Source of the DNA: Mongoliibacter ruber | GTDB taxonomy: Bacteria; Bacteroidota; Bacteroidia; Cytophagales; Cyclobacteriaceae | Assembly: GCF_003003005.1 (NCBI RefSeq) | Contig: NZ_PVTR01000011.1 | Span: 62,001 to 126,000, forward strand | Direction: 5' to 3' | Length of the DNA stretch: 64,000 nt | Shown here: positions 29,708-63,901 of the stretch, piece after piece | Layout of the letters: every line of letters starts with the position of its first letter | Numbering within the stretch: the stretch's first letter is position 1 | Position numbers and translations under genes: made by a program | Notes under the pieces: generated by a model | The model's database searches: none | Seen by the model: only the letters and a program-made list of their open reading frames with translations | Told to the model about the DNA's origin: nothing

Positions 29708-29712
29708 AACTT

Positions 29713-29811
29713 GCTTATCGAGAAAGACTGAGGGAAGGGCCCGTTGAAGTCTTAGCAACCTGAATCCAAGGTGCTAACTCCCATTCCGGAAAAGCCGGAA
29801 AAAGATGAGCG
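29713..29811 (+). promoter_or_regulatory. SAM-I (S-box) riboswitch
   Basis: The conserved core is plain: CTTATCGAGA at the 5' side of P1 and the kink-turn side, GAGGGAAGGGCCCG, TGAAGTCTTAGCAACC and GGTGCTAACTCC, followed by a variable hairpin (TTCCGG/CCGGAA) and GATGAG (29804-29809), which closes P1 with CTTATC (29714-29719). It lies in the leader of the split metH-metF operon and should reduce expression when S-adenosylmethionine is high. A stretch GAAAAAGA (29798-29805) can alternatively pair with TCTTTTTC (29823-29830), overlapping the 3' side of P1. This could be the expression-platform switch, though that part is inference. Confidence 0.93.
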
Positions 29812-60561: not shown

Positions 60562-61989
60562 ATGAATACTGAAAATTACCAGTCCGGTGAGAATTTTGAT
60601 GAAATGTTCACCGAAGAGGGTCAGTGTAGACCCCATTATTCTGAATTTCTTGACCAAGTAAAAAAAACCAGTCCAAAAAAGATGTCCCAATTGCAGTTTT
60701 CTGCAAATAAGACGCAGGTAGCTATGGGGATGACTTTCAATGTCTATCATGATAATCAGGGAACTGAGAAAATTCTTCATTTGGACATTGTTCCCAGGAT
60801 TATTCCGCGAAAAGAATGGGAACATCTTGAGGCAGGCTTAAAGCAAAGGATCAAAGCCCTGAATCTCTTCCTGGATGATATTTATAATGAGCGAAAAATC
60901 CTCAAGGATAAAGTAGTTCCGGAAGATTTGATTTTGAAAAGTCAGGATTATCTAGAGCCCTGTATAGGTCTCAAACCCCCAAAAGGAATATGGTGCCACA
61001 TTACAGGTACAGATTTGGTTCGAGACAAAAGCGGAGAATATTATATTCTTGAAGATAATCTAAGATGTCCATCAGGTGTATCCTATATGCTAGAAAGCCG
61101 GGAGATTATCAAGCGGGCCTATCCGGACTTGATTAATCAGCTTGGAGTCATGCCCGTATCGGATTATCCTGTGAAACTACTCAAAATGCTGCAGTTTCTT
61201 TCAGACAAGGAAAATCCTGTAATCGGTGTGCTGACTCCAGGAATTTATAATTCTGCTTACTTCGAGCATTCTTATTTGGCTTTGCAAATGGGAGTGGAGC
61301 TGGTTTCTGGTGTGGATCTTATCGTGAAAGATAAAAAAGTATACATGCAGACCACCAAGGGTTTGGAACAAATCGATGTCCTATACAGAAGAATAGATGA
61401 CACTTTTATGGATCCAGAGGTCTTCAATCCCGAATCCATGTTGGGTGTTCCTGGGCTATTTGAAGCGTATAAAGCTGGAAATATAGCCATTGCCAATGCA
61501 CCGGGTACAGGAGTAGCCGATGATAAAGCCGTCTATGCCTATGTTCCTCGTATTATTGAATACTATTTGAACGAAAAACCTATTTTAAACAATGTGCCTA
61601 CCTACCTCTGCAGAGAAGAAAAAGACAGAAACTATGTCTTGGAAAATATTGAGGAGTTGGTGATCAAAGAAACCAATGCTGCTGGTGGATATGGGATGAT
61701 GATCGGGCCGAAAGCTACTGTTGAAGAACATGCAAAGTTCAGAAATCTCATTAAAAACAATCCAAATAACTACATAGCGCAGCCCACCTTGTCGCTTTCC
61801 ACGGTGCCAACTCTTACTGATGAGGGACTGGCAGGCAGACATGTGGATTTACGACCTTATATTCTGTATGGTGAAGAAATAGAAGTGATTCCCGGTGCCC
61901 TTACCAGGGTAGCTTTGAAAAAGGGTTCATTGGTTGTCAACAGTTCACAAGGTGGGGGAAGTAAAGATACTTGGGTTCTTTATAAATAA
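60562..61989 (+). CDS. Circularly permuted ATP-grasp protein (DUF404/DUF407 type)
   Basis: A 475-residue cytosolic protein of the circularly permuted ATP-grasp family (CP_ATPgrasp). Recognised features include the N-terminal RPHYSEFLDQV, the central DNLRCPSGVSYMLESREI, the glycine-rich GGYGMMIGPKA near 374-384 (nucleotide-binding part) and the C-terminal VVNSSQGGGSKDTWVL. The family is predicted to ligate carboxylates to amines, in keeping with peptide synthesis, but no substrate is known. It is the first gene in a set with alpha-E, Anbu and transglutaminase genes, which is how this family typically occurs. The 191-bp gap to the next gene contains the hexamer array. Confidence 0.93.
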   Translation: MNTENYQSGENFDEMFTEEGQCRPHYSEFLDQVKKTSPKKMSQLQFSANKTQVAMGMTFNVYHDNQGTEKILHLDIVPRIIPRKEWEHLEAGLKQRIKALNLFLDDIYNERKILKDKVVPEDLILKSQDYLEPCIGLKPPKGIWCHITGTDLVRDKSGEYYILEDNLRCPSGVSYMLESREIIKRAYPDLINQLGVMPVSDYPVKLLKMLQFLSDKENPVIGVLTPGIYNSAYFEHSYLALQMGVELVSGVDLIVKDKKVYMQTTKGLEQIDVLYRRIDDTFMDPEVFNPESMLGVPGLFEAYKAGNIAIANAPGTGVADDKAVYAYVPRIIEYYLNEKPILNNVPTYLCREEKDRNYVLENIEELVIKETNAAGGYGMMIGPKATVEEHAKFRNLIKNNPNNYIAQPTLSLSTVPTLTDEGLAGRHVDLRPYILYGEEIEVIPGALTRVALKKGSLVVNSSQGGGSKDTWVLYK

Positions 61990-62016
61990 TTTTGTAAGTA
62001 GTTATAAGACTTGGCT

Positions 62017-62108
62017 GATATTCATTGATATTGGATATTGATCGATATTAATAGAAATAATGTGGAAATAAAATATCCATAAATATCAATTTAATATCTA
62101 CAAATATC
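62017..62108. repeat. Mirror array of GATATT/AATATC hexamers
   Basis: Four GATATT start at 62017, 62027, 62034 and 62044, and four AATATC (the reverse complement) start at 62072, 62082, 62093 and 62103. Start-to-start steps are 10, 7, 10, then 28, then 10, 11, 10. The array lies between the ATP-grasp and alpha-E genes. It could be a multi-site operator with sites one helical turn apart, or a large imperfect hairpin in the mRNA. Confidence 0.85.
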
Positions 62109-62180
62109 ACAGAACTAACCTCTAGAGCATTAAAGCAAGAATAAATCATAGACTTTTAATTAAGCAGAAATAATAAAAAT

Positions 62181-63158
62181 ATGTTAAGTAGAGTAGCGAA
62201 CTCCATATATTGGCTGGGAAGGTACCTGGAAAGGGCTGAGAACTATGCCAGATTTATAGATGTAAATTTCAACCTGATGTTGGATCTTCCGCCAGACCTT
62301 AAGGAGCAATGGGAACCCTTGATTTTTGCCACAGGTGATCAGGAATTGTACACCACAAAGTATAAGGGTTTTGACAGGAAAGATGTGATTTTTTTCCTGA
62401 CATTTGATACAGACAACCCCAATTCTATTATTTCCTCTATTTCTTTTGCAAGGGAGAATGCCAGAGTGATCAGAGAAAATCTTACCAAAGAAACATGGGA
62501 AAAGCTCAATGAATTGTATCATTTTGTCCAAAAAAGAGCGACCAAGAAATCCTGGCTAAATGGAGATCCGAGACAGTTTTTCGAAGATGTGAAAAATCAG
62601 ATCTTGTTATTGTATGGGCTTGGTGAAAGTACGGTTGCCAGGACTGAAGGTTGGTATTTCAGGCAACTTGGACTTTATCTTGAGCGTGCCGACAAGACTA
62701 GCAGGATTGTTGATGTAAAGTATCATATATTGCTGCCGTCTGCATCTATGGTAGGAACTCCCTTAGATTTTCTGCATTGGACAGCATTGCTCAAGTCAGT
62801 GACAGCTTTCAATACTTACAGGAGGTTGTATGGGAATATAGAGCCTTCCAAGGTGGTGAATCTGTTGTTGCTGAATAAATATTTTCCAAGGTCTGTTTTT
62901 TATTGCTTGTCAGAAGCGGAAATTTGCCTGAATAAAATTTCGGGAAACGGGGATGGGAAAATAAACAGTGCGCAAAGAAAAATAGGTGCTTTGAGATCCA
63001 AATTAGAATTTGATGATGTAAATGAAATTATGTCAAAGGGCCTACATGAATACTTAGACGATTTGCAATTGAAAATAAACAATGTTTCAAACAGCATAAA
63101 CGAAAACTTCTTTCAAATCAAGGAGAACGTTATGACACAAAACCAAACTCAAGAATGA
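62181..63158 (+). CDS. Alpha-E domain protein (DUF403)
   Basis: A 325-residue all-helical cytosolic protein. The N-terminal signature MLSRVANSIYWLGRYLERAENYAR is the family hallmark (first 24 residues), and a second copy-like segment, YFRQLGLYLERADKTSRIVDVKYH (about 155-178), shows internal symmetry. No catalytic motif is known; the family is found with ATP-grasp and transglutaminase proteins and is predicted to be part of their complex. Its stop overlaps the Anbu start by four bases (ATGA), so these two are coupled. The long gap upstream with the hexamer array suggests that expression from here on may be separately controlled. Confidence 0.93.
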   Translation: MLSRVANSIYWLGRYLERAENYARFIDVNFNLMLDLPPDLKEQWEPLIFATGDQELYTTKYKGFDRKDVIFFLTFDTDNPNSIISSISFARENARVIRENLTKETWEKLNELYHFVQKRATKKSWLNGDPRQFFEDVKNQILLLYGLGESTVARTEGWYFRQLGLYLERADKTSRIVDVKYHILLPSASMVGTPLDFLHWTALLKSVTAFNTYRRLYGNIEPSKVVNLLLLNKYFPRSVFYCLSEAEICLNKISGNGDGKINSAQRKIGALRSKLEFDDVNEIMSKGLHEYLDDLQLKINNVSNSINENFFQIKENVMTQNQTQE

Positions 63159-63901
63159 CCTTTTGCTTAGGAATAAAAACCAAATATGGCCTTATTGGGC
63201 TCTCAGATACCAGGATTACATCTGGTACCGAGACGACCACTTCCAAAAAAGTATATACCGTAAATAGGGAAAAACACTCTTTTTTCATCATGACTTCTGG
63301 ACTAAGGTCCGTTAGGGATAAGGCTATAACTTATTTTACAGAAGTTATAGAAGACCAGGATTCTGAATTCAATAAGCTTTATAAGGCTGTGAATGAATTT
63401 GGAAATCAGATCAAAAGAGTAGCCAAGGAGGACAAGCAGTATTTGGAAGAGGCGGGTCTCTCATTCAATCTTTTTTCAATCATAGGCGGACAATTAGAGG
63501 ATGACAAGACACCAAAACTCTATCTTTTGTATCCGCAAGGCAACTGGATTGAAATCCGGAGGGGAACGCCCTTCGTTATCATCGGGAATTCCGGTTCGGG
63601 AAGTCCTGTTTTGAGGCGTTCATTAAGCTATGATGAATCCTTGGACTATGCCTTGAAATGTGCTTTTTTAGCCTTTGACGCGACAAGGATTTCAGCAAAT
63701 GATGTGGATTATCCCATTGATACGATTGTGTTGGAAAATGACAAATACCATATCGTAGAGCGTCGTTTTGAACACAAGGAATTGGAACATATTTCTACTT
63801 TTTGGAATGAAAGACTCAAAGAAGCGGTGAAAGAACTTCCTGCAGAAATTCTGCAAAAGGCATTTTTTGACGAGGAGATCCCGCAAGGAGCAGAGGTATG
63901 A
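63155..63901 (+). CDS. Anbu-type proteasome-related peptidase
   Basis: A 248-residue Ntn-hydrolase of the Anbu (ancestral beta-subunit) type. The protein begins MTFCLGIKTKYGLIGLSDTR: after removal of methionine, T2 would be the N-terminal nucleophile, with the supporting D18 and lysines K31/K32, as in proteasome beta-subunits. Unlike HslV or true beta-subunits it has no propeptide. GNSGSGSPVLRRSLSY and the following LALKCAFLAFDATR-like segment (about 147-180) match Anbu proteins. Studied Anbu assemblies form rings or helices, and their natural substrates are unresolved. It overlaps both neighbours by four bases. Confidence 0.92.
   Translation: MTFCLGIKTKYGLIGLSDTRITSGTETTTSKKVYTVNREKHSFFIMTSGLRSVRDKAITYFTEVIEDQDSEFNKLYKAVNEFGNQIKRVAKEDKQYLEEAGLSFNLFSIIGGQLEDDKTPKLYLLYPQGNWIEIRRGTPFVIIGNSGSGSPVLRRSLSYDESLDYALKCAFLAFDATRISANDVDYPIDTIVLENDKYHIVERRFEHKELEHISTFWNERLKEAVKELPAEILQKAFFDEEIPQGAEV

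What the first reader, a model, noticed from the sequence alone, without database searches (positions are those of the whole stretch)
62017..62108. Mirror-image array of eight GATATT/AATATC hexamers inside the Anbu operon
Four GATATT and four AATATC form two opposed blocks with steps of about 10 bp, one helical turn apart, separated by a 28-bp step. The layout looks designed for cooperative binding by a regulator, or for a long imperfect hairpin. It sits in the only long gap of an otherwise overlapping operon, just before alpha-E, so it could set alpha-E/Anbu/transglutaminase expression apart from ATP-grasp. I know of no named motif of this form.
Basis: partly seen in the sequence, partly recalled or inferred. 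Interest (0 to 1): 0.68.

Follow-up and report, generated by a model that had tools for sequence, protein, structure and literature searches.

The report
Dispersed inward-facing GATATT arrays, protein-linked
The eight mirrored GATATT boxes are real, but they are one of dozens of copies of a lineage-specific intergenic repeat in this bacterium (a Belliella-like member of the Cyclobacteriaceae); the repeat occurs where a small protein of unknown function, a relative of the 23S rRNA 'intervening sequence' protein, is also present, so it is not a private switch of the Anbu operon.

Summary
In detail: four GATATT (62017, 62027, 62034, 62044) face four AATATC (62072, 62082, 62093, 62103) in a 191-bp gap between ATP-grasp and alpha-E. 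It is not chance: GATATT-N4-GATATT occurs 92 times in this genome, against 0 for the reversed pattern.

It is not an Anbu operator. Of 30 relatives, 4 (the window genome and its three nearest) have such arrays before alpha-E. Two genomes rich in the repeat elsewhere have 11- and 29-bp gaps there.

The array is one free copy of a clade-specific dispersed repeat. Its grammar is GATAYT-NRTN-GATAYT-G at 10/7-bp steps. Opposed blocks nearly always face inward (42 pairs to 2). The hexamers are conserved across genera while the spacers drift, and the arms are not complementary beyond chance, so protein binding fits better than a hairpin.

In an RND-efflux operon the same arrays bracket a four-helix-bundle gene (PF05635). 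Type A of this protein carries GATAYT arrays and type B carries GAAATA arrays, at the same site, which is empty in some relatives. Genomes with intact type A or B are almost exactly those with dispersed arrays (24/27 versus 1/121).

I propose a REPIN/RAYT-like layout without a transposase. Binding by the protein, and any effect on Anbu, are inferred.

The parts
60562..61989 (+). Upstream gene: circularly permuted ATP-grasp (PF14403/PF04174)
61990..62180 (.). 191-bp gap that holds the array; 5-43 bp in most relatives, so the array came with an expansion of this gap
62017..62049 (+). Left block: GATATT at 62017, 62027, 62034, 62044 (10-7-10 grammar: GATATT-catt-GATATT-g-GATATT-gatc-GATATT)
62054..62070 (+). 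Centre: two copies of the second word, GAAATA (62054-62059 and 62065-62070, 11 bp apart), the word that flanks type-B four-helix-bundle genes
   Evidence: sequence; for the word
62072..62108 (-). Right block: AATATC at 62072, 62082, 62093, 62103 (GATATT on the - strand); kept in register in G001, G061 and G065
62181..63158 (+). Downstream gene: alpha-E (PF04168)
63155..63901 (+). Anbu-type proteasome-like protease (PF00227 match), overlapping alpha-E

Best explanation
The feature is a gene-less copy of a clade-specific dispersed repeat: a pair of inward-facing arrays of a protein-binding word (GATAYT-NRTN-GATAYT-G). It most likely belongs to a family of elements whose gene-carrying form brackets a PF05635 four-helix-bundle (S23/IVP-like) gene with arrays of a matching word. 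SHOWN: the dispersed copies, the grammar, the inward polarity, conservation of the hexamers at one orthologous site, occupied and empty sites, the match of protein type to word at the gene-carrying site, and the match of intact protein to dispersed arrays across genomes. INFERRED: that the four-helix-bundle protein (perhaps as the pentameric barrel known for this fold, from my own knowledge) binds the hexamers of both arrays and bridges them; that the protein or a partner spreads or maintains the arrays; and that the copy in the Anbu operon is a passenger that widened the ATP-grasp/alpha-E gap, with at most a secondary effect on expression.
For: (1) 92 GATATT-N4-GATATT sites in this genome against 0 for the reversed control; the word is enriched only in certain Cyclobacteriaceae. 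(2) Strict grammar: same-strand start distances peak at 7, 10, 17 and 27; the spacer is N-R(95%)-T(94%)-N, followed by G. (3) Polarity of neighbouring clusters: GATATT then AATATC 42 times, the reverse 2 times. (4) Hexamers conserved (mismatch 0.08) against spacers (0.40) and flanks (0.59) at a site found by its protein, not by the motif. (5) At the RND-efflux operon the arrays bracket a PF05635 gene. Type A (9 rows in the tree) carries GATAYT and type B (11 rows) carries GAAATA; no shuffle of 200 was as well sorted. A and B alternate within one genus at one site (G159 A against G117 B; G142 A against G086 B). (6) Empty sites, with a few dozen bp from the permease to the next gene, in G040 and G067, which have neither the protein nor the arrays. 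(7) Of 148 genomes, dispersed arrays occur in 24 of 27 with type A/B and 1 of 121 without (Fisher p 2.6e-23). Five of five independent pairs on the species tree agree (sign test p 0.06). G019, whose type-A gene is truncated, has background counts (3 and 3), while its congeners with an intact gene have 18 and 0 (A) and 5 and 13 (B). (8) Generally, 51 of 76 PF05635 genes are bracketed by inverted short-word arrays, against 5% expected and 9 of 76 in direct orientation; they have a 7-bp period and a G-rich strand upstream.
Against: Gene and flanks are inherited as one unit, so the protein-word match at the site does not by itself prove recognition. Within the core clade both words persist whichever protein is present (G000 has type A but 35 GAAATA hits; G001 has type B but 85 GATATT hits). 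Of the GATAYT arrays read here, only the RND locus holds a four-helix-bundle gene. No mobilising enzyme was found and the protein has no known nuclease or transposase domain. The phylogenetically corrected test has only 5 pairs. The thresholds that make a genome 'array-positive' were set after seeing the counts.
Confidence: 0.62

Rival explanations
1. The arrays are operators of an unidentified clade-specific DNA-binding protein (nucleoid-associated or regulatory) unrelated to the four-helix-bundle protein; the four-helix-bundle gene merely inserted between two such arrays once.
For: Hexamers are conserved and spacers are not; free arrays in several genera lack any terminal repeats; only one locus family holds the four-helix-bundle gene between GATAYT arrays.
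Against: A second protein type at the same site carries a second word, and most PF05635 genes have their own inverted arrays, which a single accidental insertion does not explain. Arrays are depleted in divergent (promoter-bearing) gaps, 10 of 141, and frequent in convergent ones, unlike regulatory operators.
Confidence: 0.22
2. One reading: a dedicated cooperative operator that sets alpha-E/Anbu expression apart from ATP-grasp.
For: Position inside the operon; the right block is kept in register in the four nearest genomes.
Against: Absent in 26 of 30 relatives with the same gene order; the same array lies in dozens of unrelated gaps; promoter-like matches do not exceed chance (2 found, 2.2 expected).
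Confidence: 0.06
3. An RNA or DNA hairpin (mRNA stabiliser, terminator or RNase III site).
For: Opposed blocks; fold energy slightly below shuffles (z -1.97).
Against: Arm spacers not complementary beyond chance in 32 pairs; no terminator-like site; spacing of the arms unequal (1 nt against 5 nt in the middle).
Confidence: 0.04
4. A decayed copy of the 150-bp miniature transposon (25-bp terminal repeats, 9-10 bp target duplications) that carries GATAYT arrays in this genus.
For: About half of the arrays in this genome (44 of 86) have at least one such terminal repeat at a fixed distance.
Against: The window array scores below even the 5% shuffle threshold for both ends; the same free arrays exist in genera with hardly any such transposon (2 of 58 in Cognataquiflexum).
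Confidence: 0.06

Closest known systems
REPIN/RAYT system (within-genome evolution of REPINs, PMC3116915)
   Same: A gene flanked by a short repeat, and gene-less inverted pairs of that repeat dispersed through intergenic DNA of the same genome; repeat and gene type go together.
   Different: RAYT is a Y1-type transposase and REP is a hairpin; here the gene is a PF05635 four-helix-bundle protein and the unit is an array of direct hexamers without arm complementarity. (What I say of RAYT and REP is my own knowledge; the paper was seen as a search hit only.)
Intergenic heptamer arrays, such as TAACTGA repeats of Beggiatoaceae, Cyanobacteria and a few Bacteroidetes (MacGregor 2015, PMC4679880)
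   Same: Short words in direct repeats, intergenic, patchy across lineages, position conserved in near relatives with indels.
   Different: There mostly one orientation next to start codons and no inverted pairing rule or partner gene reported; here 10/7-bp steps, inward-facing pairs and a partner protein family.
23S rRNA intervening sequence with S23 protein (Coxiella IVS, PMC4990558)
   Same: A PF05635-family gene between inverted repeats, regarded as a selfish element.
   Different: There a nearly perfect 28-bp stem inside 23S rRNA, excised by RNase III; here imperfect word arrays in protein-coding operons.
Miniature inverted-repeat transposon of Belliella-like genomes (found here)
   Same: Carries one GATAYT array in its middle.
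   Different: Has 25-bp terminal repeats and 9-10 bp target duplications, which the window array lacks.

Membership tests
REPIN/RAYT | Dispersed gene-less inverted pairs of a short repeat in intergenic DNA | tested here: met
   42 inward pairs against 2 outward; nearly all intergenic
REPIN/RAYT | Partner gene flanked by the same repeat | tested here: met
   type-A gene between GATAYT arrays in several genera
REPIN/RAYT | Partner gene is a Y1 tyrosine transposase | tested here: not met
   partner matches PF05635 and TIGR02436 only
REPIN/RAYT | Repeat unit forms a hairpin | tested here: not met
   arm spacers not complementary beyond chance
Conserved Anbu-operon operator | Present before alpha-E in relatives with the same operon | tested here: not met
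   4 of 30
Miniature transposon of this genus | Terminal inverted repeats around the array | tested here: not met
   window array scores -2.3 to 2.6, 1% threshold 9.3
Heptamer arrays (STRR/TAACTGA type) | Short word in direct repeats at a fixed 7-bp period | tested here: inconclusive
   7-bp steps are frequent but alternate with 10; arrays around other PF05635 genes do peak at 7, 14, 21
23S rRNA intervening sequence element | PF05635 gene between inverted repeats | tested here: inconclusive
   met for the RND locus, no such gene at the window copy
Any system with protein-DNA binding | A protein binds the hexamers | not testable with these tools
   only conservation of hexamers was measured

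The most novel reading that the evidence does not exclude
PF05635 four-helix-bundle (S23/IVP/Avd-like) proteins are the sequence-specific partners of short-word arrays: each subtype recognises its own word, sits between two inward-facing arrays of it, and maintains or spreads gene-less array pairs through the genome. This would be a transposase-free analogue of REPIN/RAYT and would give a job to a widespread protein family without known function.
Probability: 0.4. Interest if true: 0.8.

Novelty: new variant of a known kind. Interest (0 to 1): 0.6.

Why it matters
S23/IVP-like four-helix-bundle genes are common in Bacteroidetes and have stood without a role since they were noticed inside 23S rRNA. 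If their subtype decides which word is scattered through the genome, that is a directly testable protein-DNA (or protein-RNA) pairing and a new kind of selfish or domesticated repeat system. It also warns that conspicuous mirrored motif arrays in one operon gap need not be operators of that operon.

Tried and rejected
Rfam: no family matches the array. Terminator and promoter scan: nothing above chance. Miniature transposon as the origin of the window copy: rejected by its scores; a gapped resemblance of the right flank to the terminal repeat that I saw by eye was not pursued. Search for an autonomous transposon with the same ends: none among inward-facing ends; many small contigs of the genome read as N (withheld), so absence is not shown. 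Arm complementarity: negative. PF05635 presence alone as the cause: rejected, since the family is in most relatives with or without GATAYT arrays; only the type A/B subclade tracks them. Correlation of flanking word with protein identity over all PF05635 genes: weak (Mantel r 0.14, 1 of 500 permutations as high) and confounded by orthology. Literature searches found no description of the GATAYT arrays or of word arrays around PF05635 genes; only open-licence papers were searched. The query had a mistyped tail (last ~20 residues), so it is 91% identical to its source; ranks of hits should not be affected.

Full report
OBSERVATION. Steps are 10, 7, 10, 28, 10, 11, 10. The middle also contains two GAAATA words (62054, 62065). 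Clustering is far from chance (8 of the window's 70 GATATT lie in 92 bp).

NOT PRIVATE TO THE ANBU OPERON. GATATT-N4-GATATT occurs 92 times in this genome (0 for the reversed pattern), nearly always between genes. Named genomes with the long form are all Cyclobacteriaceae or their order: Belliella, Cognataquiflexum, Aquiflexum, Cecembia, Lunatibacter, Arthrospiribacter, Mongoliibacter, Mongoliitalea, Indibacter, Pararhodonellum and unnamed relatives. Near-identity of L043-L045 to Belliella alkalica L133 suggests that the window is from a Belliella-like species. In 30 genomes with the alpha-E gene, only G000, G001, G061 and G065 have such arrays before it (gaps of 191-505 bp). G002, G107 and G040 have 152-182 bp of other sequence, which in G002 and G040 includes GTAC-rich repeats. 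All others have 5-43 bp, among them G021 and G048, which have many arrays elsewhere. The right block is kept in register in the four, while the left block varies in length.

GRAMMAR. Over the arrays of many genera, same-strand start distances peak at 7, 10, 17 and 27. The unit is GATAYT-N-R-T-N-GATAYT, usually followed by G and a second unit. Opposed clusters face inward 42 times and outward twice. Arrays are rare in divergent gaps (10 of 141) and common in convergent and codirectional ones. The two arms of 32 opposed pairs do not share complementary spacers (0.41 identity against 0.49 for shuffled partners), so a stem is not what is being kept. At one orthologous site, located by its protein and not by the motif, 11 genomes show mismatch of 0.08 in hexamer columns, 0.40 in spacers and 0.59 in flanks; part of the 0.08 comes from one genome whose array has another spacing. 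Such conservation suggests binding by a protein.

TURNOVER. Copies come and go: an array in G061 is absent from the same gap in G065, and G000 arrays L085 and L062 are missing or replaced in G061. Whole units are tandemly duplicated in Cognataquiflexum. In Belliella-like genomes a 150-bp miniature transposon with 25-bp terminal repeats and 9-10 bp target duplications carries an array; it accounts for about half of the copies here (44 of 86), but not for the window copy and for hardly any in other genera.

THE PARTNER GENE. In an RND-efflux operon of this genome and several genera, arrays in the same inward orientation bracket a small gene matching PF05635/TIGR02436, the four-helix-bundle protein known from 23S rRNA intervening sequences (distant solved relative 2rld). 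A family-wide search found two types of this protein at that place. Type A is flanked by GATAYT arrays and type B by GAAATA arrays; on the protein tree the words sort with the types. Both types occur within one genus (G159 A, G117 B; G142 A, G086 B) and within the Belliella-like group (G000, G065 A; G001, G061 B), as if one element replaced the other. In G040 and G067 the place is empty: permease and next gene are a few dozen bp apart. G019 keeps a truncated type-A gene and array remnants.

GENOME-WIDE COUPLING. Counts of the two words in 148 genomes against presence of type A or B: 24 of 27 genomes with the protein have dispersed arrays, 1 of 121 without it (Fisher p 2.6e-23; thresholds chosen after seeing the counts). 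The most telling contrasts lie outside the core clade: G159 (intact A) 18 GATATT pairs and 0 GAAATA pairs; G117 (intact B, same genus) 5 and 13; G019 (broken A, same genus) 3 and 3; G104 and G151 (type B by similarity) 2 and 11, 1 and 9. On the alpha-E/Anbu tree the array state changes at least five times on supported branches, and in five of five independent pairs it follows the intact protein (p 0.06, the best that five pairs can give). In the core clade both words are present whichever type is found now, which fits past replacement but weakens a strict one-to-one rule.

A WIDER PATTERN. Of 76 PF05635 genes from the order, 51 have inverted similarity between upstream and downstream flanks above the 95% level of mismatched controls; only 9 have direct similarity. 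A random-ORF control run with the first 29 genes gave the same background. These flanks are short-word arrays with a 7-bp period and a G-rich strand upstream, and the word differs from gene to gene. A gene-less GTAC-rich array in the alpha-E gap of G002 resembles the arrays around PF05635 genes of G001 and G002. The polarity is the same as that of the gene-less GATAYT pairs.

READING. The window feature is best seen as a gene-less copy of such an array pair, with both words, that entered the ATP-grasp/alpha-E gap in the ancestor of four near genomes. What binds it, how copies move, and whether alpha-E or Anbu expression is touched are not shown. I rate the dispersed-repeat part at about 0.9 and the link to the four-helix-bundle protein at about 0.6.

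LIMITS. Genomes are anonymous and some stretches are withheld; the literature search covers open-licence papers only; presence calls rest on one similarity threshold; and gene plus flanks are inherited together, so trans recognition rests on the genome-wide counts.

Noticed in passing
L001, L008, L010, L078, L086 and about 25 other places of G000: A 150-bp miniature transposon with 25-bp terminal repeats (ATGATTATCCGCAATCATGCCACTA / TACTGGTATGAAAGCGGATATACAT), 9-10 bp target duplications and one GATAYT array in its middle; no autonomous partner found.
   Followed up: partly
L243-L272, L311-L350: PF05635 four-helix-bundle genes across Cytophagales are generally bracketed by inverted short-word arrays with 7-bp period, each gene with its own word.
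   Followed up: partly
L023 (G002), L209 (G040), gap before alpha-E: The same operon gap holds GTAC-word arrays in other genera, similar to the words around PF05635 genes in L244 and L249: the gap seems to collect such arrays.
   Followed up: no
L004, L045, L057, L061, L074, L141, L199: GC-rich palindromes (such as CCTGCCCTCCGGGAGGCGGG and GGATCCGCCNCGGCGGAC) sit inside GATAYT arrays, replacing a middle step.
   Followed up: no
L142 3859-4319; L122 and L195: Whole array units tandemly repeated (five perfect copies about 102 bp apart; a 97-bp repeat that differs in number between sister species).
   Followed up: no
window 29712-29811: SAM riboswitch (RF00162, 84.4 bits) on the + strand.
   Followed up: no
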